64,000 bases of DNA from a virus, in IMG/VR virus record IMGVR_UViG_3300013132_000025, positions 1 to 64,000 of that record; one strand, given 5' to 3'. The notes below the pieces were generated by a model. That model was given only the letters and a program-made list of their open reading frames with translations. It was not told the DNA's origin and searched no databases. Made by a program: the position numbers and the translations under genes. The first letter of the stretch is position 1. Every line of letters starts with the position of its first letter. Of this stretch, positions 11,011-25,193 are shown in pieces.

Positions 11011-11568
11011 TTAAATCCTTTTCCACTTTGTTGTTCTTATCCCCGGCTGCGGGGTAGTATATTGTTCCATTCCCGGCAAAGTTAATTGAGTTCCCGGTTC
11101 TTCTGGAATGGTAACTTCAGGAACTTGTTGCTGCATAACTTCGTAGTTAGGCATAGGTGCTGGGGGCATTTGCCTTCTCTGCTTAAACAGAGTCATTTGT
11201 GGATCTGAGGTTAAAGGTTGTCCCCAAGATTGCCACATCGCGGCAACAATGTGTGAACAAGGACGACCTTCAAACTTCTTCCATTGCCTTGTTCTTTGCC
11301 ACGCATACTTTCCCCAGTCACAGCCACATTCCCAATTTGTTATCTTATTGTTGTCTGGATTTTCACGATAGATAACCACATCGTACAATCCATTATCTCC
11401 TTGAACTTGACCTTGGACAATCTTAACTTCATTGACATTAAGCAAAACCTGACCGTTATCTTTAATACGTTTTGCTTTATTTCTAACATCAACCCAAGCC
11501 GCTTCCTTTACTAAGGCAACGGCCTCTTTAACTGTTTTTGCTTTCTTAACAACATCTAACTCAGACAT
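11011..11568 (-). CDS. SWIM zinc-finger protein
   Basis: 185 aa. Residues ~75-115 contain CGCDWGKYAWQR followed by RPCSHIVAAMW, the CxC...CxH pattern of SWIM zinc-binding domains, known to mediate DNA or protein contacts. The N-terminus (DVVKKAKTVKEAVALVKEAA) is helical and the C-terminus is Pro/Gln-rich, ending TTKWKRI. Stop and start codons overlap those of the CCA-adding-type gene upstream (TAATG), implying coupled synthesis. The partner is unknown; SWIM domains alone do not define activity. Confidence 0.65.
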   Translation of the reverse strand: MSELDVVKKAKTVKEAVALVKEAAWVDVRNKAKRIKDNGQVLLNVNEVKIVQGQVQGDNGLYDVVIYRENPDNNKITNWECGCDWGKYAWQRTRQWKKFEGRPCSHIVAAMWQSWGQPLTSDPQMTLFKQRRQMPPAPMPNYEVMQQQVPEVTIPEEPGTQLTLPGMEQYTTPQPGIRTTKWKRI

Positions 11569-13478
11569 TAATAACTCATTGCGTTTACGTTGTAATTTTC
11601 CTGCAAATGCTCAGGATTTGGATCGTCATCATCACGATCTATAGGATATTCATGAGCAATATCCGGTTGTGTATTAATTACTCTGCCGGAACTAAAGTCA
11701 TAAAAGGCTATTTGTTGTTCTTGTTGGGCCAGTCGTAAGGCGTTTATTTCTTCTGGGACAATTCTTATTAGGTCTAGATAAACTAAGCCTTTCCCACCTT
11801 TTGTGTCATTCCAAGATCCGATTTTTACATCAGGATTGTGAGATAAGAACTTAGCGTGTTCATTTTTAAATCTTTTCACATCTTCTGCATCAAAATGATT
11901 AATATCAATAGCAGTTCCGTGATCGTTAAGGCCGACCCCAAATCCTTCTCCTTCGTACCCTGAGAAGTCTGAGTTCCAAGTAAAGCCTTGTCCTTCTTCA
12001 AATGTTTTGCTTATACCTTTGTGAAAATTAGGATGAACGTTTGCGGCAAATTTCATTTTTGATGATACCTTAGAGGGGTATAGAGTTTTTACAATATTTA
12101 ACAATTCTTGACGATTGTTTAGGGAAGGATGCTCAATGACCAAATCCATTATTTTTTTAATTATTTGCCCAACTTGTGGGCCTGATGAGATCCCCAATAA
12201 CTTAATAATATCATTACCGTTAATTGCAAGGTCTTTAGGAGAAAAAACTGCTTGCGATGCGGCTTCATTATTAATAAGACTTCTCATCTTATCAGTCATC
12301 ATCCGGGTAGCATTTTCATTACCTTTGCCCATATGATCTGCTTCTCGGAGGTTAAGTAGGTCGTGGGCTGTTTCTGGCGATCCTGAGTTATTAAGAAACT
12401 TTCTTGCGCCTTTTGGAGAATTAAAAGAAGGAAACATATGATTGTTAATTAAGTGTTTAATTCTACCAATTCGGTTTGCGGGATAGCGAAGCCTTGACAA
12501 TATTCCTTCAGCCATTTCTGCGCCAACTTCGTCGTGATTAGCACCTTGTCCTTGCTCTCCTTTATAGAAATGACCCACCCCGTTTTCATCTTCCCACATG
12601 GATGAGGGCTTACCAATATCGTGCAATAATGCTGCCATACGAACATCGGTGTCACTTGTCAATCCCGAAACATTTTTTAATACATTCATAATGTGTGTGC
12701 CTAAATCATGCTTATGATAAAAGTTTTTTTGATCAAACCCAAATGTGGAGTGAACTTCGGGAAGAAAATGATCTAACACTCCAGTTTCTTGACCAAGTTT
12801 AATTGCCTCAGATGGATAATTGCCTGACAAAATCTTTTCTAATTCTTGTCCAACGGTTTCCATTGGTGTCTTTTTGAGATGTGGGGCGTGCAATCTCATT
12901 TGTTCTTTTGTTTCTTCATCTGGTTGAAGTCCGTGTTTGCTTAAGGCGGTTAAGGCTCTCATTGTGCGAGAAGAATCATCACGAAAAGAATTTGAGTGAA
13001 CCGTTTTTAGAACACCATTTTCAATATCTTTTAATCCGTCAAATGGATCAACGACTTGTCCGGTTTTAGCATTTACAGCAATTGCGTTTGCAGTAAAATC
13101 TCTTCTTTCTAAATCTTTTTCTACAGGAATAGAAGAGTCAGATTTAATCTGCCAATCTTTATTTCCTTCTCCAGTTTTTACTTCAATACGAGGAAGAGCA
13201 ATCTCTACTTCGCTTCCCCCATAATTAAAACGATATACTGGGAATTGCTTTCCGGTCAAAGATAATTTTCCTTTAGGAACGCTTTTTAAGACTGATTCAA
13301 TTGTATCTCCGTTGACCTTAGCCATAATGTCAATATCTTTAGGCTTTTTGCCAAGGACAACATCTCTTGGCGCTCCACCGACAACATAAACTTCTCCAAA
13401 AGGGGAGAGGCTGTCAACTGCCATCTTTGCAGCGGGGTCATCATTTACAAGTCTTAAAATTGTTTCCGATAAATTCAT
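11568..13478 (-). CDS. CCA-adding enzyme-like nucleotidyltransferase with HD domain and C-terminal extension
   Basis: 636 aa, longer than ordinary bacterial CCA enzymes. The N-terminal pol-beta-type head has VVGGAPRDVVLG and the catalytic pair in DIDIMA (Asp48, Asp50), then RRDFTANAIA, DPFDGLKDIENG and SSRTMRALTALSKHG, all classic class II tRNA nucleotidyltransferase motifs. An HD phosphohydrolase domain follows (HDLGTHIMN, LLHDIGKP, NHDEVGAEMAEG). From ~residue 460 comes an extra domain starting near SKMKFAANVHPNFHKG. Class II enzymes add CCA to tRNA 3' ends. None of the phage tRNAs here encodes CCA, so this role fits. The extra domain and late-type position are odd. Confidence 0.8.
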   Translation of the reverse strand: MNLSETILRLVNDDPAAKMAVDSLSPFGEVYVVGGAPRDVVLGKKPKDIDIMAKVNGDTIESVLKSVPKGKLSLTGKQFPVYRFNYGGSEVEIALPRIEVKTGEGNKDWQIKSDSSIPVEKDLERRDFTANAIAVNAKTGQVVDPFDGLKDIENGVLKTVHSNSFRDDSSRTMRALTALSKHGLQPDEETKEQMRLHAPHLKKTPMETVGQELEKILSGNYPSEAIKLGQETGVLDHFLPEVHSTFGFDQKNFYHKHDLGTHIMNVLKNVSGLTSDTDVRMAALLHDIGKPSSMWEDENGVGHFYKGEQGQGANHDEVGAEMAEGILSRLRYPANRIGRIKHLINNHMFPSFNSPKGARKFLNNSGSPETAHDLLNLREADHMGKGNENATRMMTDKMRSLINNEAASQAVFSPKDLAINGNDIIKLLGISSGPQVGQIIKKIMDLVIEHPSLNNRQELLNIVKTLYPSKVSSKMKFAANVHPNFHKGISKTFEEGQGFTWNSDFSGYEGEGFGVGLNDHGTAIDINHFDAEDVKRFKNEHAKFLSHNPDVKIGSWNDTKGGKGLVYLDLIRIVPEEINALRLAQQEQQIAFYDFSSGRVINTQPDIAHEYPIDRDDDDPNPEHLQENYNVNAMSY

Positions 13479-17831: not shown

Positions 17832-17835
17832 TCCT

Positions 17836-17907
17836 TCGGGAGTAGTTCAGAGGTAGAACGAATGGCTGTTAACCATTATGTCGCAGGTTCGATCCCTGCC
17901 TCCCGAG
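17836..17907 (+). tRNA. tRNA-Asn(GTT)
   Basis: Full cloverleaf: acceptor TCGGGAG/CTCCCGA, D-stem GTTC/GAAC, anticodon stem AATGG/CCATT with loop CTGTTAA, and T-arm GCAGG-TTCGATC-CCTGC. G discriminator; CCA is not encoded. Confidence 0.93.
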
Positions 17908-17910
17908 TAA

Positions 17911-17981
17911 GCGGCTATAGTTTAGCGGTAGAACACTGGCCTTCCAAGCCATTAGCGCGGGTTCGATTCCCGCTAGCCGCT
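17911..17981 (+). tRNA. tRNA-Gly(TCC)
   Basis: Acceptor GCGGCTA/TAGCCGC, anticodon loop CTTCCAA, T-arm GCGGG-TTCGATT-CCCGC and discriminator T. It reads GGA (and possibly GGG). CCA is not encoded. It starts three bases after tRNA-Asn, so the two are probably cut from one precursor. Confidence 0.92.
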
Positions 17982-18010
17982 TAAAATAAAAACAAAGATT
18001 GGAGTATATT

Positions 18011-18190
18011 ATGATTAATGAACGCAAAAAGAACACAGATCTTCACAAGGGTAATCCAGAAATACTTCACCCAAACAAGTCCGAACAAGACAGAATGCCT
18101 TCAGCAGAAAGGCCTAGAGTTAAGAAAGCCCAGCAATGGGCAGACAATATGCAAAAGGAGAGACCTAGCGGCATAGGCTTAAACGGTTAG
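18011..18190 (+). CDS. Small hydrophilic protein between tRNA genes
   Basis: 59 aa (MINERKKNTDLHKGNPEILH onward), highly charged and probably partly disordered, with no hydrophobic segment. I chose ATG 18011 because GGAG lies seven bases upstream; an upstream TTG (17999) would overlap that site. It lies between tRNA-Gly and tRNA-Arg on the same transcript. No family recognised. Confidence 0.55.
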   Translation: MINERKKNTDLHKGNPEILHPNKSEQDRMPSAERPRVKKAQQWADNMQKERPSGIGLNG

Positions 18191-18200
18191 TCTTATGCTT

Positions 18201-18273
<73 letters not shown>

Positions 18274-18276
18274 TTT

Positions 18277-18349
18277 GGGCGAGTAACTCAGCGGTTAGAG
18301 TGCCTGCTTTACACGCAGGAGGTCGGGGGTTCAAATCCCTCCTTGCCCA
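18277..18349 (+). tRNA. tRNA-Val(TAC)
   Basis: Acceptor GGGCGAG/CTTGCCC with one G-T pair, D-stem ACTC/GAGT, anticodon stem CCTGC/GCAGG with loop TTTACAC, T-arm GGGGG-TTCAAAT-CCCTC and discriminator A. It reads GTA. CCA is not encoded. Confidence 0.92.
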
Positions 18350-18355
18350 TCAGAA

Positions 18356-18439
18356 CGGAGCGTGGTGGAATTGGTAGACACAGCAGACTCAAAATCTGCC
18401 GGGGGTAACTCCGTGGGGGTTCAAATCCCTCCGCTCCGA
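18356..18439 (+). tRNA. tRNA-Leu(CAA)
   Basis: A class II tRNA with a long variable arm (CGGGGGTAACTCCG region). Acceptor CGGAGCG/CGCTCCG, anticodon stem GCAGA/TCTGC with loop CTCAAAA, T-arm GGGGG-TTCAAAT-CCCTC. It reads TTG. CCA is not encoded. The anticodon class is a known substrate class of TrmL-type methyltransferases. Confidence 0.92.
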
Positions 18440-18440
18440 C

Positions 18441-18512
18441 TGGCCTATCGTTCAATGGTAAGGACGCGATTCTTATAAAGTCGTAATTCGGGTTCGATTC
18501 CCGGTGGGCCTA
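18441..18512 (+). tRNA. tRNA-Ile(TAT)
   Basis: D-stem GTTC/GGAC, anticodon stem CGATT/AGTCG with loop CTTATAA, T-arm TCGGG-TTCGATT-CCCGG. With U8 in its usual place the acceptor is TGGCCTA/TGGGCCT, giving an unpaired U1-U72. A shifted reading (GGCCTAT/GTGGGCC) pairs fully but loses U8. It reads ATA directly, whereas most bacteria use a lysidine-modified CAU tRNA. Confidence 0.82.
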
Positions 18513-18612
18513 TTTTCATATCATAGATGGTTAGAAAGGGAAGACACAAGAAGTAAATCGGTAGTTATCAGATATGAAAACGTAACCACTCGTTTTAAAG
18601 TTAAAAAACGAG
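18513..18612 (+). other. Structured noncoding leader before the Rpf-like gene
   Basis: TTTTCATATC (18513-18522) is a perfect 10-base inverted repeat of GATATGAAAA (18571-18580). A second hairpin follows: CTCGTTTT (18589-18596) with AAAACGAG (18605-18612). Neither is followed by a T-tract. The first arm begins directly at the tRNA-Ile 3' end. It may be a processing or regulatory leader; no known riboswitch is recognised. Confidence 0.5.
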
Positions 18613-18650
18613 CAGATAAGTTCTAACCTAACCCACAACAAAAGGTATTT

Positions 18651-19169
18651 ATGTTTAAGTATATTACAATTGCAGCAGTGGCAATAGCCACGGCTATTGG
18701 AGTTTCCGGTTCGCTTCAAGCAGCAACCCAAGTAGCCGGTGGAGCGGGCGTGCAGGCAAAACATGAGAGAACTTACAAAAAGAAAGTTCCTTGCTATCAT
18801 CATGAAGGAAACGACAAGAAGAAATGTCTGACAGAATATAAAAAGCATCGTCAGCGCGATCTTGTTAAGTTTCCTCCTAATCCAACTCGGGAAGATGTGG
18901 CAAAACGAGTCCCTGATTGGCAAGGCTTTGTAAGATTAGGCAGATGTGAACAACCGGGTCATTCTAAGTACGGTGACGGTGTTAATTGGTCACATTCTGG
19001 GCCAACATGGGGCGGTGGTTTGGGCATTTATAAATCCACTTGGTTTATGGCAAATTCCCCATACAAACTCTGGTCTGGAGATAAGTGGGAAACAATTTTA
19101 GTTGCAGACGCGATTCGTGATCAAGTCGGTATTACGGCTTGGGGCGCACACGCATGTTTCTATGGCTAG
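18651..19169 (+). CDS. Secreted Rpf/transglycosylase-like protein
   Basis: 172 aa. A signal peptide is visible at residues 1-24 (MFKYITIAAVAIATAIGVSG, likely cleavage after LQA). The C-terminal ~85 residues carry DWQGFVRLGRCEQPG and GGGLGIYKSTWF, resembling resuscitation-promoting-factor/transglycosylase domains of Actinobacteria, with a candidate catalytic Glu in RCEQPG; the Cys in RCEQ and the one near the C-terminus could form a disulfide. Such enzymes cleave peptidoglycan glycan strands outside the membrane. A basic linker (~40-80) connects signal and domain. It sits among tRNA genes, not with lysis genes, so a role in waking or reshaping host wall is possible. Confidence 0.7.
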   Translation: MFKYITIAAVAIATAIGVSGSLQAATQVAGGAGVQAKHERTYKKKVPCYHHEGNDKKKCLTEYKKHRQRDLVKFPPNPTREDVAKRVPDWQGFVRLGRCEQPGHSKYGDGVNWSHSGPTWGGGLGIYKSTWFMANSPYKLWSGDKWETILVADAIRDQVGITAWGAHACFYG

Positions 19170-19173
19170 GAAG

Positions 19174-19203
19174 TTAGCATGGTCTGAGGCTGTCTGGTAT
19201 ACT
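19174..19203 (+). promoter_or_regulatory. Candidate extended -10 promoter before tRNA-Leu(TAA)
   Basis: TTAGCA (-35-like, 19174-19179), 18-base spacer, then TATACT (19198-19203) preceded by TG at 19195-19196. It would start transcription just before tRNA-Leu at 19215. Sequence match only. Confidence 0.45.
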
Positions 19204-19214
19204 TTTAAGACAGC

Positions 19215-19296
19215 GGGGATGTGGCGGAATTGGCAGACGCAGAGGACTTAAAATCCTTGGCCTTCGGGCTTGTGGGTTCGACTCCCACCTTCCCTA
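19215..19296 (+). tRNA. tRNA-Leu(TAA)
   Basis: A class II tRNA with variable arm TGGCCTTCGGGCTT. Anticodon stem GAGGA/TCCTT with loop CTTAAAA and T-arm GTGGG-TTCGACT-CCCAC. Acceptor GGGGATG/CTTCCCT has G1-U72 and a T6-T67 mismatch. It reads TTA. CCA is not encoded. Confidence 0.9.
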
Positions 19297-19358
19297 TAGT
19301 TTAAATAGTGCAAATTTATTAGAATTTGCGGGGCATTAAAGTGCAAAGGATTGGACAA

Positions 19359-19565
19359 ATGGTTGAAAATACCGTGAGTGAAGATCAAAATCAAAGTCAG
19401 TTCGATAATCCATTAGATGAATACGAACGGGCAAAATCAGACTATCTATATGCTAGCAGGCATTATCCAAATTACTACGCAGTAAGTAGTTATATTGAGG
19501 CCGAAGAACGTGCTTGGGAAAGATTTGAAAGAGCATATCGCGCCCTACAAAAACTTGACGATTAG
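19359..19565 (+). CDS. Small acidic/aromatic protein, unknown
   Basis: 68 aa from ATG 19359, chosen because AAGGA lies about nine bases upstream; GTG 19341 or TTG 19326 would extend it. The sequence is helical with many Tyr, Glu and Arg residues (YIEAEERAWERFERAYRALQ) and suggests a short coiled or helical hairpin. No membrane segment or metal motif. It lies between tRNA-Leu and tRNA-Glu. Not recognised. Confidence 0.5.
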   Translation: MVENTVSEDQNQSQFDNPLDEYERAKSDYLYASRHYPNYYAVSSYIEAEERAWERFERAYRALQKLDD

Positions 19566-19599
19566 CCGCCTGATTGATAGTCTACAAATATAAGCGCTC

Positions 19600-19671
19600 G
19601 GGGCGTTCGTTTAGTGGTTAGGACACCGGGCTTTCATCCCGGCAACGCGGGTTCGATTCCCGCACGCCCTA
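19600..19671 (+). tRNA. tRNA-Glu(TTC)
   Basis: Acceptor GGGGCGT/ACGCCCT with G1-U72, D-stem GTTT/GGAC, anticodon stem CCGGG/CCCGG with loop CTTTCAT, and T-arm GCGGG-TTCGATT-CCCGC. It reads GAA/GAG. CCA is not encoded. Confidence 0.92.
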
Positions 19672-19694
19672 CTAATAAAACAACAAGGAAAAAT

Positions 19695-19865
19695 ATGGCA
19701 CGCGCAAAACATCGCTGGAAGCACGCTCATAATCAGATGATTGCTCTAGTTAATAGAGTAGAGAGGCAACGCAAGCATCAGGAAATGCTTGAAGAGCATC
19801 GTAACATTAAGAAATCTGGACTTCGTGCGGAGGCAAAGTCTATCGAACCAGATCCCCAAGATTAG
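19695..19865 (+). CDS. Small basic protein, unknown
   Basis: 56 aa (MARAKHRWKHAHNQMIALVN onward), very rich in Arg, Lys and His, predicted helical. ATG 19695 has AAGGA about six bases upstream; the longer frame would start inside tRNA-Glu. Its charge would suit nucleic-acid binding, but no motif proves it. It lies between tRNA-Glu and tRNA-Gln. Confidence 0.5.
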   Translation: MARAKHRWKHAHNQMIALVNRVERQRKHQEMLEEHRNIKKSGLRAEAKSIEPDPQD

Positions 19866-19871
19866 ATTTAT

Positions 19872-19942
19872 TCCGGGGTCATCTAAAGGTAGGATAGGAG
19901 ACTTTGAATCTCTTCATGGTGGTTCGAATCCACCCCCCGGAT
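19872..19942 (+). tRNA. tRNA-Gln(TTG)
   Basis: Acceptor TCCGGGG/CCCCGGA, D-stem ATCT/GGAT, anticodon stem GGAGA/TCTCT with loop CTTTGAA, and T-arm GGTGG-TTCGAAT-CCACC. It reads CAA. CCA is not encoded. Confidence 0.92.
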
Positions 19943-19949
19943 CTATATC

Positions 19950-20183
19950 ATGAATATACTTTGGCTGTCTTGGATATTAGCAATACTTAGTTTGATTGGC
20001 ATGTGGAATGTCGGAAAGTACCGTCTTTGGGCTTGGATTTATCTTGGCGTGCTAGAGATTCTTTGGACATTCTATGGTATATTAACTGAGCAGTATGGTT
20101 TTCTTCTACTCACCGTAGGATATATAACGATCTATACGATCAATTACAAGCGTTGGAAGCAAAACCAAAAAGAAGTGCTATAA
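19950..20183 (+). CDS. Small integral membrane protein
   Basis: 77 aa with about three hydrophobic spans: residues ~2-19 (NILWLSWILAILSLIGMW), ~28-46 (WAWIYLGVLEILWTFYGIL) and ~50-66 (GFLLLTVGYITIYTI), with a basic C-terminal tail. ATG 19950 is eight bases after tRNA-Gln and lacks a clear Shine-Dalgarno site apart from GGA in the tRNA end. Small multi-span proteins of this kind occur in many phages. Transport, anti-holin or exclusion roles cannot be told apart. Confidence 0.6.
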   Translation: MNILWLSWILAILSLIGMWNVGKYRLWAWIYLGVLEILWTFYGILTEQYGFLLLTVGYITIYTINYKRWKQNQKEVL

Positions 20184-20192
20184 TAACCTTAC

Positions 20193-20264
20193 GGCTCTAT
20201 GGCGTAACGGCAGCGTAGGGGACTTTTAATCCTTCAGGTCTAGGTTCGAATCCTAGTGGAGCCA
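20193..20264 (+). tRNA. tRNA-Lys(TTT)
   Basis: Acceptor GGCTCTA/TGGAGCC with wobble pairing, D-arm GCGTAACGGCAGCGT, anticodon stem GGGGA/TCCTT with loop CTTTTAA, T-arm CTAGG-TTCGAAT-CCTAG and discriminator A. It reads AAA/AAG. CCA is not encoded. Confidence 0.9.
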
Positions 20265-20295
20265 TGTTCTGTAAACTAATAAAGGAGGCTGTGCT

Positions 20296-20823
20296 TTGAA
20301 TGCGGCTCTTGATAATCGTAATGTAGTTGATCATTACAAGTATTGGAACGAAGATGCAATCCGGGCATCGCTTGATACTAAGCGTTTTCCCTTTATCGTG
20401 GTGTGTGAAAATTTTGATAAAGACTTTAATATTTCAACTGTGGTTCGTAACTGCAATGCTTTTACGGGCAAAGAGATGTGGATCGTTGGGAACAAGCGTT
20501 GGGACCGGCGAGGGGCCGTAGGAACCCACAATTATGAACACATTAAGCACGCAGCAACTGTTGGTGAAGTGGTGCTTAAGTATTTAGATTATAAAGTAGT
20601 CGTTTGTGAGGCTTATCCAGAGGCTAAGGATATCCGCGACTACGATTGGCCTTTGAAGACTATTCTTGTCTTTGGTCAAGAGAGCATCCGGGTAACTGAC
20701 GAAACTCTTGCAATTGCTGATGATGTTGTGTATATTCCTCAGTATGGAAGTACGCGCTCTCTTAATGTTGGGTGCGCTTCTGCAATTGCAATGTATTCTT
20801 ATATTCAGCAGCATGGAGGTTAA
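20296..20823 (+). CDS. SpoU/TrmH-family RNA 2'-O-methyltransferase
   Basis: 175 aa, the size of minimal SPOUT enzymes without an N-terminal extension. The three SpoU motifs are present: NISTVVRNCNAFTG (motif 1 with Asn and Arg), ILVFGQES (motif 2) and SLNVGCASAIAMY (motif 3, knotted SAM-binding end). The segment WDRRGAVGTHNYEH is reminiscent of actinobacterial TrmH-like proteins. It methylates ribose 2'-OH in tRNA or rRNA using SAM. TTG 20296 has a perfect AAAGGAGG site seven bases upstream. The location in a tRNA cluster points to phage tRNAs as substrate, possibly the two tRNA-Leu as for TrmL (inference). Confidence 0.85.
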   Translation: MNAALDNRNVVDHYKYWNEDAIRASLDTKRFPFIVVCENFDKDFNISTVVRNCNAFTGKEMWIVGNKRWDRRGAVGTHNYEHIKHAATVGEVVLKYLDYKVVVCEAYPEAKDIRDYDWPLKTILVFGQESIRVTDETLAIADDVVYIPQYGSTRSLNVGCASAIAMYSYIQQHGG

Positions 20824-20825
20824 TG

Positions 20826-21044
20826 ATGGATCGTATTGATGATATTCGTGCCAACTTAAACGAGTGGAGCGATCTTGGCATCGTGGAGCAAATGCGTCAT
20901 GGCGATGATTACGCCGATGGCTTTGCAGACGACATTGCATACCTGCTGGCGGAGGTTGAGCGGCTGCAAAAAGTAGAAAAGCATAGAGAAGAGTTGAGCA
21001 TCAAGTTGCGTGATAATCTCAATAATAGGAATTATGATGGCTAA
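20826..21044 (+). CDS. Small acidic protein, unknown
   Basis: 72 aa (MDRIDDIRANLNEWSDLGIV onward), acidic N-terminus and a helical, basic C-terminal part. Of two adjacent ATGs the second, 20826, is better spaced from GGAGGT at 20815-20820. It overlaps the next gene's start by a few bases, so translation is coupled between the methyltransferase and deaminase genes. It resembles small helical phage proteins without assigned role. Confidence 0.55.
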   Translation: MDRIDDIRANLNEWSDLGIVEQMRHGDDYADGFADDIAYLLAEVERLQKVEKHREELSIKLRDNLNNRNYDG

Positions 21045-21465
21045 TAAGATTGAAGAATTTTTAGCCGTAACTGAAAATATGGCAGAACGTTCTACCCTTA
21101 AGCGTTTTCAAGTTGGTGCCCTTATCCACAAGGATGGAGAGATTAATACCGGCTGGGCGCATATGTCTGACCTTAAGTTGGAGAAGTATATTTCTATTCA
21201 TGCAGAGATGCACGCTCTTTGGCGCTCTAACCCCAAGGCTCTAGAGAACGCCGATTGCTATATTGTTACTCTTTCTGCTAAGAGTAAGAACCGAACTAGC
21301 GGTAAGCCTTGTGAGACTTGCATGGCGCATCTTTATGATGCTGGCATCCGTAAGGTCTACTATTCGGTTAGTAATGATGAGTACGGAGTTATTGATTTTA
21401 GGAATGGTTTTCCTGAGATTGAAATGATTAAGACTCGCACTCCTAATGATTGGTCAAATAACTAA
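21037..21465 (+). CDS. Cytidine/deoxycytidylate deaminase-family protein
   Basis: 142 aa. The zinc-binding deaminase signature is complete: SIHAEMHAL (His and catalytic Glu) and KPCETCMAHL (two Cys ligands). The family deaminates cytosine nucleosides, nucleotides or related bases; dCMP deamination to dUMP would fit with the phage dUTPase and NrdJ. The substrate cannot be fixed from sequence. Start 21037 is chosen over 21034 by distance from AGGA (21027-21030). The stop overlaps the glf start (TAATG). Confidence 0.82.
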   Translation: MANKIEEFLAVTENMAERSTLKRFQVGALIHKDGEINTGWAHMSDLKLEKYISIHAEMHALWRSNPKALENADCYIVTLSAKSKNRTSGKPCETCMAHLYDAGIRKVYYSVSNDEYGVIDFRNGFPEIEMIKTRTPNDWSNN

Positions 21466-22550
21466 TGTATGATTACCTTATTGTAGGCGCAGGATTGTTT
21501 GGAGCAACCTTTGGGCGCTTAATGACAGACGCCGGTAAGAGTTGTATGATTATTGACAAACGCAACCATGTAGGTGGAAATGTTTATACTGAAAATTCTG
21601 ATGGGATTCATGTTCATAAGTATGGTCCTCATATCTTTCATACGTCCAACGATGAAATTTGGAACTTTGTAAATAAGTTTACTGAGTTCAATAATTACAT
21701 CCATCGTGTAAAAGCATATAACAACCATAAGTTCTATACGCTTCCTTTTAACCTTAAAACTTTTAACGAGATTATGGGTACGCAAAGTCCCGTACTTCTA
21801 GAAAAGTTTCTTAATGAAAGAGAACGGGACGAAACAAATCTAGAAACTTGTGCAATTTCTCTCGTTGGAGAAGAAGTGTATAAAACTTTGATTAAGGGAT
21901 ATACTGAAAAGCAATGGGGCAGGCAAGCAACACAACTTCCTGCTTCTATTATTAAAAGAATTCCTGTACGTCTTACGTTTGAAGATAATTACTTTAACGA
22001 TAAGTATCAGGGTATTCCAGTAAACGGATATACAAAAATGATTGAAAAAATAATTGAGGGAATTCCTATTCTACTTAATCAAAACTTTACTCATGATATG
22101 AAAGACATTGCGAACAAAATTGTGTACACAGGACCGATTGATCAGTTCTTTAATTACGCCCTTGGTCGTTTAGAGTATCGTTCATTAGAGTTTGTTGAAG
22201 AAGAATATGAATATGATTACTATCAAGGATGCGCTCAAATCAATTACACAAATAAAGAGATTCCTTTTACAAGGATAATAGAACATAAGCATTTTTACCC
22301 TAGCCTTAAAGTAGGCAAAACAATCGTTACTAGAGAGTTTCCTGTGGCATCTGGCGATCCATACTATCCAATAGCAGATGATAAGAACAACAAACTTTTT
22401 CTTGAATATAAGGATATGGCCAGTCAAAAAAGACCGGAGGTTATCTTTGCTGGCAGGCTAGGTAATTATAAGTATTATGATATGCACCAAGTTATTGGTC
22501 AGGCAATGAAGTATGCTAAACTAGAAAAAGAAAAGAGTGCGAACAGTTAA
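21465..22550 (+). CDS. glf: UDP-galactopyranose mutase
   Basis: 361 aa, normal length. The N-terminal FAD-binding motif is YLIVGAGLFGATFGRLM, followed by NHVGGNVYTE and the substrate-loop signature HKYGPHIFHTSNDEIW. GYTEKQWG and the C-terminal FAGRLGNYKYYDMHQVIG complete the Glf pattern. The flavoenzyme interconverts UDP-galactopyranose and UDP-galactofuranose in the cytoplasm. The product feeds galactofuranosyltransferases; three glycosyltransferases occur elsewhere in this window. Translation is coupled to the deaminase gene by a one-base stop/start overlap. Confidence 0.92.
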   Translation: MYDYLIVGAGLFGATFGRLMTDAGKSCMIIDKRNHVGGNVYTENSDGIHVHKYGPHIFHTSNDEIWNFVNKFTEFNNYIHRVKAYNNHKFYTLPFNLKTFNEIMGTQSPVLLEKFLNERERDETNLETCAISLVGEEVYKTLIKGYTEKQWGRQATQLPASIIKRIPVRLTFEDNYFNDKYQGIPVNGYTKMIEKIIEGIPILLNQNFTHDMKDIANKIVYTGPIDQFFNYALGRLEYRSLEFVEEEYEYDYYQGCAQINYTNKEIPFTRIIEHKHFYPSLKVGKTIVTREFPVASGDPYYPIADDKNNKLFLEYKDMASQKRPEVIFAGRLGNYKYYDMHQVIGQAMKYAKLEKEKSANS

Positions 22551-22563
22551 AGAGTGGTAACTT

Positions 22564-22846
22564 GGGGATGAATTAGTTTCGACCTATAGAGAAGCCAAGT
22601 CAATCAGCGGTTAGTCACCTTATAACTCCTGCTTGGATAAGCAAATAAATATAAATGGCAACTTAAACGAAGTCATTGTCCCAGACACTTTCCCCGCCTC
22701 ATGGATAGAGGAATTTGCTGGGGTAGCCGCCTAATCTACCACTATTAGGCACTGTAGTTAAAACTGTAGTACAATGTAGTATATAGGCTGTATAAGTTGA
22801 TTTGATAGAACTATATGGGACACCGGGGCAGAGCCGGTCATCTCCA
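22564..22846 (+). ncRNA. ssrA: tmRNA (ssrA)
   Basis: The 5' end GGGGATG (22564-22570) pairs with CATCTCC (22839-22845), discriminator A. AGTTTCGACC is the usual 5' tmRNA signature. Helix 2 forms between CCTATA (22583-22588) and TATGGG (22814-22819). The T-arm ACCGG/CCGGT (22822-22838) has a seven-base loop GGCAGAG instead of the normal TTCRANT. The tag frame ends in GCC GCC TAA, with its stop inside a hairpin GCCTAAT/ATTAGGC (22729-22750), as in known tmRNAs. The RNA releases stalled ribosomes and tags the product for proteolysis. No SmpB gene is in the window. Confidence 0.85.
22657..22734 (+). other. Predicted tmRNA proteolysis-tag reading frame
   Basis: The frame starting GGC AAC TTA AAC GAA reads 25 codons and ends ...EEFAGVAA before TAA. 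VAA is close to the common LAA degradation end. The exact resume codon is uncertain because the frame is open upstream of 22657. Confidence 0.5.
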
Positions 22847-22851
22847 TACAA

Positions 22852-22926
22852 CGCGGGGTAGGGCAGTCAGGTCAGCCCGTCGGCTTCATGCGTCGAAGGT
22901 CGCAGGTTCGAATCCTGCCCCCGCTA
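22852..22926 (+). tRNA. Initiator-like tRNA-fMet(CAT)
   Basis: Acceptor CGCGGGG/CCCCGCT leaves C1-U72 unpaired, the hallmark of bacterial initiators. The D-stem GGGC/GCCC gives a purine-11/pyrimidine-24 pair, also initiator-type. The anticodon arm is TCGGC/GTCGA with loop TTCATGC, and the T-arm is GCAGG-TTCGAAT-CCTGC. The usual three consecutive G-C pairs in the anticodon stem are replaced by G-C, G-U, C-G, and residue 37 is G. It starts six bases after tmRNA. CCA is not encoded. Confidence 0.82.
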
Positions 22927-23784: not shown

Positions 23785-24693
23785 TTAAATATAAGTTGAA
23801 GTATATATTTGACCACCATACGCAGTTGCTACGAGTTTACTTCCATCTGCTGAGAAGGCTACTGAATACCAACTCCTATTAGATTGTCTAGCAGTCCAAT
23901 TAACTCCTGAGTCTGTTGAAGTATATATTTGACCGTTAAGCACAGTTGCTACGAGTTTAGTTCCATCTGCTGAGGAGGCTACTGAATACCAATTCCTAAC
24001 AGATTCTCTAGCAGTCCAATTAACTCCTGAGTCTGTTGAAGTATAAATTTGACCGTTAAACACAACTGCTACAAGTTTAGTTCCATCTGAAGATGAGGCA
24101 ACTAAACGCCAATTCCTAACAGATTCTCTAGCAGTCCAGTTAACTCCTGAATCTGTTGAAGTGTAGATTTGCCCATATCCGGCAGTTGCTACAAGTTTAG
24201 TTCCATCTGAAGATGATGCAACTGAACGCCAATCCCTATTAGATTCTCTTGCAGTCCAATTAACTCCTGAGTCTGTTGAAGTATAAATTTGACCGTTAAA
24301 CACAACTGCTACGAGTTTAGTTCCATCTGCTGAGGAGGCTACTGAATGCCAACTCCTATTAGATTGTCTAGCAGTCCAATTAACTCCTGAGTCTGTTGAA
24401 GTATAAATTTGACCGTTAAACACAACTGCTACGAGTTTAGTTCCATCTGCTGAGGAGGCTACTGAATACCAATCTCTATTAGATTCTCTAGCATTCCAAC
24501 TTACTCCTGAGTCTGTTGAAGTATATATTTGACCGCCGTACACAACTGCTACAAGTTTAGTTCCATCTGAAGATGAGGCTACTGATAGCCAACTCCTATT
24601 AGATTCTCTAGCAGTCCAATCTCTTCCCACAATTCCCGCACTAATTCTTTTTAATTTATGAGCGTTACATATATTGCCAATAGAAAGTGCCAT
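23785..24693 (-). CDS. Seven-blade propeller tail fibre (Asp-box/BNR repeats)
   Basis: 302 aa from ATG 24693, preferred to ATG 24720 because GGGAGA lies ten bases upstream and the ATG overlaps the previous TAA. After a ~30-residue N-terminus come seven 40-residue repeats, each with WTARESNR, SVASSSDGTKLVA and GQIYTSTDSGVNW. S-x-D-x-G-x-x-W is the Asp-box of BNR/sialidase-type beta-propellers, and seven units would close one propeller. Catalytic sialidase residues are not seen. The propeller probably binds a sugar or surface receptor at the tail tip. Confidence 0.78.
   Translation of the reverse strand: MALSIGNICNAHKLKRISAGIVGRDWTARESNRSWLSVASSSDGTKLVAVVYGGQIYTSTDSGVSWNARESNRDWYSVASSADGTKLVAVVFNGQIYTSTDSGVNWTARQSNRSWHSVASSADGTKLVAVVFNGQIYTSTDSGVNWTARESNRDWRSVASSSDGTKLVATAGYGQIYTSTDSGVNWTARESVRNWRLVASSSDGTKLVAVVFNGQIYTSTDSGVNWTARESVRNWYSVASSADGTKLVATVLNGQIYTSTDSGVNWTARQSNRSWYSVAFSADGSKLVATAYGGQIYTSTYI
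23791..24630 (-). repeat. Seven tandem 120-bp coding repeats
   Basis: The sequence GTTGAAGTATA recurs with exactly 120-base spacing (near 23795, 23915, 24035, 24155, 24275, 24395, 24515), and the intervening sequence is nearly identical between several units. Each unit encodes one propeller blade. Confidence 0.92.
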
Positions 24694-25193
24694 TAGTATA
24701 AGTCTCCCATAAGTAACCATTCATCTGTATTTATCTTAATAATAGAAGCCGCTGAATATTGAGTTCTTAAAATAGCAGAAGGGGTTGATCTTAAAGTAAC
24801 TCCAGCGGTTCCTATAACAGTAACAGTTCCTGTTCCTAGTTGAGCCAAATCTACTTTTTGTCCAATTGCAAATGCCTGAGAAGAATTGACGGGAATTTGC
24901 ACAGTTCCAGAAGCAGTTCCAGCACACATTAGCAGTTTACCATTATCTGTTGTAACTAAAGTATAAACAGAACCAGCGGTAGCCGCGCTAGTAATTGCCG
25001 TCCCAATCGGCTGATTTACAATATTTATTACTGACCCTTGAGTTGCTGTTAAATTAACTGCGGTTCCGACGGTTCCTGCCAAAGCAGTTCCGTAATTTTT
25101 TAAATAATCAAGGTTATCTCTAACCTGCGTATTCCACATTGTCGTAGTTAATGTCCCTCCGGTTACGGCAGTGGATGGTGTTGTATATGGCAT
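24693..25193 (-). CDS. Tail protein with conserved adhesin-type C-terminus
   Basis: 166 aa. The N-terminal ~35 residues (MPYTTPSTAVTGGTLTTTMW ... VRDNLDYLKNYG) match a segment common at the start of phage tail-fibre proteins. The C-terminal ~60 residues (AGVTLRSTPSAILRTQYSAA ... DEWLLMGDLY) are a beta-rich end found in many phage fibre and baseplate proteins. It is encoded with one-base overlap to the propeller gene, suggesting it is the fibre's attachment or neighbour subunit. Confidence 0.6.
   Translation of the reverse strand: MPYTTPSTAVTGGTLTTTMWNTQVRDNLDYLKNYGTALAGTVGTAVNLTATQGSVINIVNQPIGTAITSAATAGSVYTLVTTDNGKLLMCAGTASGTVQIPVNSSQAFAIGQKVDLAQLGTGTVTVIGTAGVTLRSTPSAILRTQYSAASIIKINTDEWLLMGDLY

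What the first reader, a model, noticed from the sequence alone, without database searches (positions are those of the whole stretch)
22564..22846. Phage tmRNA with a non-consensus T-loop
The tRNA-like domain is otherwise well formed: a seven-bp acceptor, the 5' signature, helix 2, and a five-bp T-stem with a seven-base loop. The loop is GGCAGAG rather than TTCRANT, although every tRNA around it keeps the standard loop. The T-loop normally stacks with the D-loop and carries modified U54/U55, so this tmRNA may depend on altered SmpB contacts or lack those modifications. It could also be an inactive decoy.
Basis: partly seen in the sequence, partly recalled or inferred. Interest (0 to 1): 0.8.

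Follow-up and report, generated by a model that had tools for sequence, protein, structure and literature searches.

The report
Phage tmRNA with alternative elbow
A virus of bacteria carries its own ribosome-rescue RNA in which the usual 'elbow' contact of the tRNA-like part has been swapped for a different, matched set of bases; the same swap recurs in other phages and in some bacteria, so the RNA is very probably working rather than broken.

Summary
A full-length one-piece tmRNA lies at 22564-22846 (+). Rfam RF00023 aligns all 374 model positions (E 2.6e-10), but at 32.6 bits, below its cut-off, and ARAGORN misses it. The T-loop is GGCAGAG.

It is neither an error nor a decoy. Six IMG/VR contigs carry the same T-arm and a seventh relative carries GGCAGTA. 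Across the three distinct sequences, six helix pairs change on both sides with pairing kept, and the 25-codon tag frame is conserved.

Among 121 distinct tRNA-like domains with fully paired acceptor and T-stems, A18 always goes with G55 (72) and G18 with U55 (48, plus one C55). Independently, U54 always goes with A58 (71) and G54 with G58 (50). One looser domain breaks the first rule.

G54/G58 loops occur in two-piece alphaproteobacterial tmRNAs, one-piece tmRNAs of one Actinomycetota order, and one-piece phage tmRNAs, which ARAGORN misses.

Most likely this is a working tmRNA with a compensated, U54/U55-free elbow. The loop variant was known from Caulobacter and Reclinomonas mitochondria. The one-piece phage class and double covariation appear undescribed in the papers I could search.

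The parts
22564..22846 (+). one-piece tmRNA gene (ssrA), 283 nt to the discriminator base
   Evidence: RF00023 1-374, E 2.6e-10; homologues L007-L012, L126
22564..22570 (+). acceptor stem 5' strand GGGGATG, with G3 of the G3.U70 alanine identity pair
   Evidence: sequence; 7/7 pairs invariant in 3 distinct sequences
22575..22576 (+). D-loop A18-G19 equivalents (AG; consensus tmRNA GG)
   Evidence: A18 goes with G55 in 72 of 72 distinct domains, G18 with U55 in 48 of 49, the other C55
22577..22583 (+). conserved TTTCGAC of the 5' tRNA-like segment
   Evidence: sequence; cmscan alignment
22585..22608 (+). helix 2, 5' strands (TATAG, CAAGTCAAT, CAGC)
   Evidence: two two-sided changes in H2c; pairs with 22787-22815
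22657..22734 (+). tag reading frame, resume codon GGC: GNLNEVIVPDTFPASWIEEFAGVAA, stop TAA
   Evidence: conserved frame: L008 differs by one residue (I/V); L126 has an in-frame 3-nt deletion and ends GVVA
22722..22750 (+). pseudoknot over the stop codon: GGTAG 22722-22726 / CTACC 22736-22740 and GCCTAAT 22729-22735 / ATTAGGC 22744-22750
   Evidence: second helix has two two-sided changes in 3 sequences; one terminal pair of the first helix is broken in the relatives
22787..22815 (+). helix 2, 3' strands
22822..22838 (+). T-arm: stem ACCGG/CCGGT, loop GGCAGAG (22827-22833) = G54 G55 C56 A57 G58 A59 G60
   Evidence: exact T-arm in 6 other contigs; stem has two two-sided changes in L126
22839..22846 (+). 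acceptor stem 3' strand CATCTCC plus discriminator A; CCA not encoded (followed by TACAA)
   Evidence: sequence
22852..22926 (+). tRNA (CAT anticodon) 5 nt downstream, probably in the same transcript
   Evidence: ARAGORN and RF00005
22956..22980 (+). terminator-like hairpin with T-tract after the tmRNA/tRNA pair
   Evidence: 2 found against 0.6 expected; consensus match only
21465..22550 (+). upstream gene, UDP-galactopyranose mutase-like, ends 13 nt before the tmRNA
   Evidence: Pfam GLF 4.3e-74; 70% aa identity to the L007-group homologue
11568..13478 (-). phage CCA-adding enzyme (tRNA nucleotidyltransferase), which could supply the missing CCA
   Evidence: phrog_2244 3.3e-66, Pfam PolyA_pol 3.5e-25

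Best explanation
This is a functional one-piece phage tmRNA that uses an alternative tRNA elbow. The three base changes in the T-loop (U54 to G, U55 to G, A58 to G) are compensated. G54 and G58 replace the U54.A58 pair that closes the T-loop. G55 meets A18 in the D-loop instead of U55 meeting G18. The C56-G19 contact is kept. The tRNA-like domain can therefore still fold into the elbow needed for SmpB, EF-Tu and AlaRS, but it cannot carry m5U54 or pseudouridine-55. The rest follows the normal scheme: processing from an operon transcript that also holds a tRNA, CCA addition (the phage has its own CCA-adding enzyme), charging with alanine (G3.U70, A73), then tagging of stalled proteins with AGNLNEVIVPDTFPASWIEEFAGVAA using host SmpB. 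Shown here: presence, conservation, helix-preserving changes, tag-frame conservation and the 18/55 and 54/58 covariations. Inferred: the geometry of the new pairs, charging, host SmpB use and tagging.
For: RF00023 full-length hit. Same T-arm in six other contigs. Six helix pairs with changes on both sides and 41 of 42 examined pairs intact in three distinct sequences; tag frame conserved, with a 3-nt in-frame indel and two alternative stops, TAA/TAG. The tmRNA differs from L008 at roughly a tenth of positions, while the protein just upstream is only 70% identical. Without exception in 121 distinct tRNA-like domains, A18 goes with G55 (72), G18 with U55 (48) or C55 (1), U54 with A58 (71), G54 with G58 (50). 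Reverse test: fetched by a GGCRG T-loop, all 36 genomic loci whose D-loop was found have A18, 31 two-piece in Pseudomonadota and 5 one-piece in one Actinomycetota order. T-loop anatomy, including a purine-purine A54-A58 precedent: PMC7912444. D-/T-loop contact needed for SmpB binding: PMC3968760.
Against: Only three distinct close sequences were available. Domains in the survey are related to each other, so the Fisher p-values (about 1e-34) overstate the strength. L095 is an exception under looser pairing (A18 with TTCGACT, acceptor 6/7). Fold energy is not exceptional (z -1.06). The Rfam score is below the gathering cut-off. No expression, charging or structure data.
Confidence: 0.82

Rival explanations
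1. The tmRNA is a decayed gene or an inhibitory decoy that titrates SmpB or AlaRS, as reported for the tag-less tmRNA-like RNA of mycobacteriophage DS6A.
For: The T-loop departs from the common consensus; phage decoys of this kind exist (PMC4131195; PMC11915505). L126 has a degron-poor tag end (GVVA).
Against: The tag frame, stop codon and stop-codon pseudoknot are conserved with compensatory changes. The RNA is better conserved than the neighbouring gene. The D-loop partner has changed in step. A decoy would need no tag frame.
Confidence: 0.06
2. Origin: the phage took an alphaproteobacterial two-piece tmRNA and re-joined it into one piece (re-permutation), keeping the alphaproteobacterial elbow and an EEFA-VAA-like tag end.
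For: Alphaproteobacterial two-piece tmRNAs in the sample nearly all have A18 with GGCRG. L034, L036 and L077 are two-piece, with the identical 5' 20-mer GGGGATGAATTAGTTTCGAC and the identical loop GGCAGAG. Re-permutation has a precedent in the Jakoba libera mitochondrion (PMC11915505).
Against: An Actinomycetota order has one-piece GGCAGTA tmRNAs, and the phage's virion proteins are nearest to those of actinobacteriophages, so no re-joining is needed. The shared part is short and constrained, so convergence is possible.
Confidence: 0.25
3. Sequencing or assembly error in the T-loop.
For: None beyond the unusual loop.
Against: The same loop in six other contigs from other samples, with ~10% divergence elsewhere in the RNA; the coupled D-loop change; matching two-piece genes.
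Confidence: 0.01
4. The tmRNA is functional but phage-specific in purpose: its long, variable tag ends (VAA, VVA, or ALV in the Mycobacterium phage Teardrop) alter the fate of tagged proteins rather than simply copying host quality control.
For: Tags of 24-25 residues; the C-terminal residues differ between close relatives (GVAA and GVVA), and the Teardrop tmRNA encodes a 25-residue tag ending AALV.
Against: Most of the tag is conserved but nothing about proteolysis was testable; two of the three distinct sequences end VAA.
Confidence: 0.25

Closest known systems
Standard one-piece tmRNA, Rfam RF00023
   Same: Gene order, acceptor with G3.U70, TTCGAC segment, helix 2, tag frame, pseudoknot at the stop, T-arm
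   Different: A18 in the D-loop; GGCAGAG T-loop; short (283 nt); no encoded CCA; scores 32.6 bits against a cut-off of 47
Permuted two-piece alphaproteobacterial tmRNA (Caulobacter type, Rfam RF01849)
   Same: A18 with GGCRG loop; L034/L036/L077 share the exact 5' 20-mer and loop GGCAGAG; published notice that Caulobacter has G in place of U342 (PMC1168896)
   Different: Gene is not permuted and there is no intervening segment; single RNA
Reclinomonas americana mitochondrial tmRNA (RF02544)
   Same: GG replaces U341-U342 of the T-loop (PMC1168896)
   Different: Mitochondrial, two-part, no tag frame
One-piece tmRNA of an unnamed Actinomycetota order (L413, L444-L447)
   Same: One-piece, A18, GGCAGTA loop; L413 lacks encoded CCA as well
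   Different: About 340 nt to the T-arm against 258; loop end TA instead of AG; different tag (ADSHEFALAA in L413)
tmRNA of Mycobacterium phage Teardrop (Bxz1-like, cluster C; L378)
   Same: One-piece tmRNA in a myovirus with related tail sheath; 25-residue tag
   Different: G18 and TTCGAGT T-loop, i.e. the normal elbow
Two-piece tmRNA of methylophage Melnitz and other marine phages
   Same: Phage-encoded tmRNA with alphaproteobacterial affinity (PMC9004378)
   Different: Two-piece; ARAGORN-detectable

Membership tests
tmRNA (ssrA), standard form | tRNA-like domain: 7-bp acceptor, TTCGAC, T-stem with 7-nt loop | tested here: met
   acceptor 7/7, T-stem 5/5
tmRNA (ssrA), standard form | score above the RF00023 gathering cut-off (47 bits) | tested here: not met
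   32.6 bits, E 2.6e-10, full length; a detection threshold rather than a structural feature
tmRNA (ssrA), standard form | alanine identity G3.U70 and discriminator A | tested here: met
   sequence; invariant in relatives
tmRNA (ssrA), standard form | tag reading frame with stop, ending in a ClpXP-type C-terminus | tested here: met
   GNLNEVIVPDTFPASWIEEFAGVAA*, conserved in L008; L126 ends GVVA
tmRNA (ssrA), standard form | helix 2 and pseudoknots | tested here: met
   helix 2 and one pseudoknot over the stop with two-sided changes; pseudoknot 1 not worked out
tmRNA (ssrA), standard form | consensus T-loop TTCRANN and D-loop GG | tested here: not met
   GGCAGAG and AG; both replaced together as in alphaproteobacteria and an Actinomycetota order
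tmRNA (ssrA), standard form | charging with alanine, SmpB binding, tagging activity | not testable with these tools
   needs experiments
Permuted (two-piece) tmRNA | T-arm segment encoded upstream of the acceptor 5' segment, with intervening sequence | tested here: not met
   5' segment precedes the T-arm by 258 nt
Tag-less tmRNA decoy (DS6A type) | no tag reading frame | tested here: not met
   25-codon frame conserved

The most novel reading that the evidence does not exclude
tmRNA evolution has a second, self-contained elbow. A18.G55 plus G54.G58 is a fully compensated substitute for G18.U55 plus U54.A58, reached through an A18.G55/U54.A58 intermediate seen in Bacillota and some phages. It needs no uridine modification, and it supports one-piece trans-translation in phages and in an Actinomycetota order as well as two-piece trans-translation in alphaproteobacteria. 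One-piece members have been overlooked because ARAGORN does not call them.
Probability: 0.6. Interest if true: 0.6.

Novelty: new variant of a known kind. Interest (0 to 1): 0.5.

Why it matters
The T-loop/D-loop contact is among the most conserved tertiary contacts in biology. A natural double switch with intermediates, running through 121 distinct tRNA-like domains without exception, makes the long-standing question of which part of the elbow is sequence and which is geometry (and whether m5U54 and pseudouridine-55 are needed) directly testable in tmRNA. In practice it shows that ARAGORN-based annotation overlooks a class of one-piece tmRNAs: it missed all eight loci tested with a GGCRG loop, and the window.

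Tried and rejected
Sequence error (rejected by L007-L012). Decoy or decay (rejected by tag and helix conservation). A shifted 3' end with a standard loop (not found by cmscan). A phage-encoded SmpB as partner (none in the 129.6-kb record; the record may be incomplete). More close relatives: the AGTTTCGACCTATAG scan gave only five chance matches beyond the known set, and the mutase search gave only the same group plus three contigs without a tmRNA at that place. First idea that the loop is purely alphaproteobacterial: weakened by the Actinomycetota hits. Single-sequence folding: not informative (z -1.06). My first D-loop script for the genomic loci had a wrong offset and returned nothing; corrected. 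Papers by Keiler 2000 and Sharkady 2004 on two-piece tmRNA are not held, so a prior report of the 18/55 covariation cannot be excluded.

Full report
WHAT IS THERE. At 22564-22846 (+), between a UDP-galactopyranose mutase gene that ends 13 nt upstream and a tRNA with CAT anticodon that starts 5 nt downstream, lies a complete one-piece tmRNA. Rfam RF00023 aligns over its full length at 32.6 bits, E 2.6e-10; ARAGORN does not call it. CCA is not encoded. By inspection of the bases that follow each called tRNA, none of the 11 tRNAs of the window encodes it either, and the phage carries a CCA-adding enzyme. A terminator-like hairpin follows the tRNA.

IS IT REAL AND KEPT. An exact search for the T-arm finds six other viral contigs, identical to each other at this locus. 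A seventh, L126, carries the same kind of gene with loop GGCAGTA. The alignment of the three distinct sequences keeps 41 of 42 examined pairs. Six pairs change on both sides with pairing kept: two in the T-stem, two in helix 2, two in the pseudoknot helix that covers the stop codon. The tag frame is GNLNEVIVPDTFPASWIEEFAGVAA in the window, with one I/V change in L008 and an in-frame 3-nt deletion in L126. Against L008 the RNA is conserved at about nine positions in ten, while the mutase next to it is 70% identical as protein. This excludes error and argues strongly against decay or a tag-less decoy.

THE LOOP IS ONE HALF OF A COUPLED CHANGE. The D-loop of this RNA reads AG where the consensus reads GG. 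I scanned viral contigs with two 5'-segment patterns differing only at that base and looked for the T-arm without any condition on its loop. With A, 31 permuted and 20 standard genes had a loop with G at position 55, two had an unlikely loop (TCTATTG), one had TTCGACT and five had no T-arm found; with G, U55 prevailed. The same A pattern in GTDB genomes found two-piece genes with GGCRG loops in alphaproteobacteria and Rickettsiales, and one-piece genes with TGCRA loops in Bacillota. In the reverse direction, a GGCRG T-arm pattern matched 119 of 399 Pseudomonadota genomes, 2 of 297 Actinomycetota (one a chance match) and 0 of 300 Bacillota. In a further draw from the order of the Actinomycetota hit, 5 of 61 genomes, the first hit included, had it. 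All 36 of these loci whose 5' segment could be found have A at position 18: 31 two-piece, 5 one-piece.

COUNTS. Over all loci held, requiring full acceptor and T-stem pairing, 121 distinct tRNA-like domains remain. Position 18 against 55: A/G 72, G/U 48, G/C 1, no others. Position 54 against 58: U/A 71, G/G 50, no others. G54/G58 occurs only together with A18/G55. The domains are related to each other and were fetched by patterns, so the Fisher p-values near 1e-34 are not to be taken at face value. But the association holds in permuted and standard genes, in at least three bacterial phyla and in phages. One domain (L095) breaks the 18/55 rule under looser pairing.

MECHANISM. [quoted passage not shown] eukaryotic initiator tRNA has a purine-purine A54-A58 pair (PMC7912444). 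In tmRNA the contact of the two loops is required for SmpB binding, and m5U and pseudouridine are normally present in the T-loop (PMC3968760). The covariations say that the two contacts are re-paired, not lost: G54 with G58, A18 with G55, C56-G19 unchanged. The exact geometry is inference. The RNA should be charged with alanine (G3.U70, discriminator A), bind host SmpB (none in the phage record), and tag stalled proteins.

WHERE IT COMES FROM. Tail sheath and baseplate proteins are nearest, at about 33-36% identity, to those of Mycobacterium cluster C, Rhodococcus and Gordonia phages, so an actinobacterial host is likely but not shown. The tmRNA of the cluster C phage Teardrop has the normal elbow. 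The same GGCAG loop in one-piece chromosomal tmRNAs of an Actinomycetota order gives a simple source. The identical 5' 20-mer and loop in two-piece phage genes L034, L036 and L077 leaves open a re-joined alphaproteobacterial tmRNA, as reported for Jakoba libera mitochondria (PMC11915505). I could not decide between them.

WHAT WAS KNOWN. Burks et al. 2005 (PMC1168896) noted G for U342 in Caulobacter and GG for U341-U342 in Reclinomonas mitochondria. The D-loop partner and the exception-free double covariation do not appear in the papers I could search, but key older papers are not held. ARAGORN missed all eight loci tested with a one-piece GGCRG tmRNA, as well as the window, while it found a one-piece TGCGA tmRNA (L093), the TTCGA one (L095) and four of the five two-piece GGCRG genes tested.

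VERDICT. This is a new variant within tmRNA: a phage one-piece tmRNA with a compensated alternative elbow.

Noticed in passing
L095:4158-4489: One-piece tmRNA with A18 but a TTCGACT loop and one acceptor mismatch, while close relatives (L092, L108, L112) have GGCAGTA; perhaps its 3' end was replaced by recombination, since tmRNA 3' ends are integration sites.
   Followed up: no
window 20296-20823 (+): SpoU-family methylase gene among the phage tRNA genes (Pfam 4.6e-24); possibly a tRNA methylase such as the G18 or position-34 enzymes.
   Followed up: no
window 22852-22926 (+): tRNA with CAT anticodon has a C1.U72 mismatch at the top of the acceptor stem, also in the L007 relative; initiator-like at that one position but without the usual G-C run in the anticodon stem.
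   Followed up: no
window 17835-22926: None of the 11 tRNAs encodes CCA, and the phage brings its own CCA-adding enzyme (11568-13478, -).
   Followed up: partly
window 23785-24720 (-): Protein of near-identical repeats with BNR/Asp-box signatures just after the tRNA region.
   Followed up: no
L413, L444-L447: One-piece chromosomal tmRNAs with A18 and GGCAGTA loop in an unnamed Actinomycetota order (5 of 61 genomes sampled).
   Followed up: partly
L034:6570 region (reverse strand): Two-piece phage tmRNA with an unusually long tag ending QRQSLAV, next to a tRNA cluster; ARAGORN misses it although it finds other two-piece GGCRG genes.
   Followed up: no
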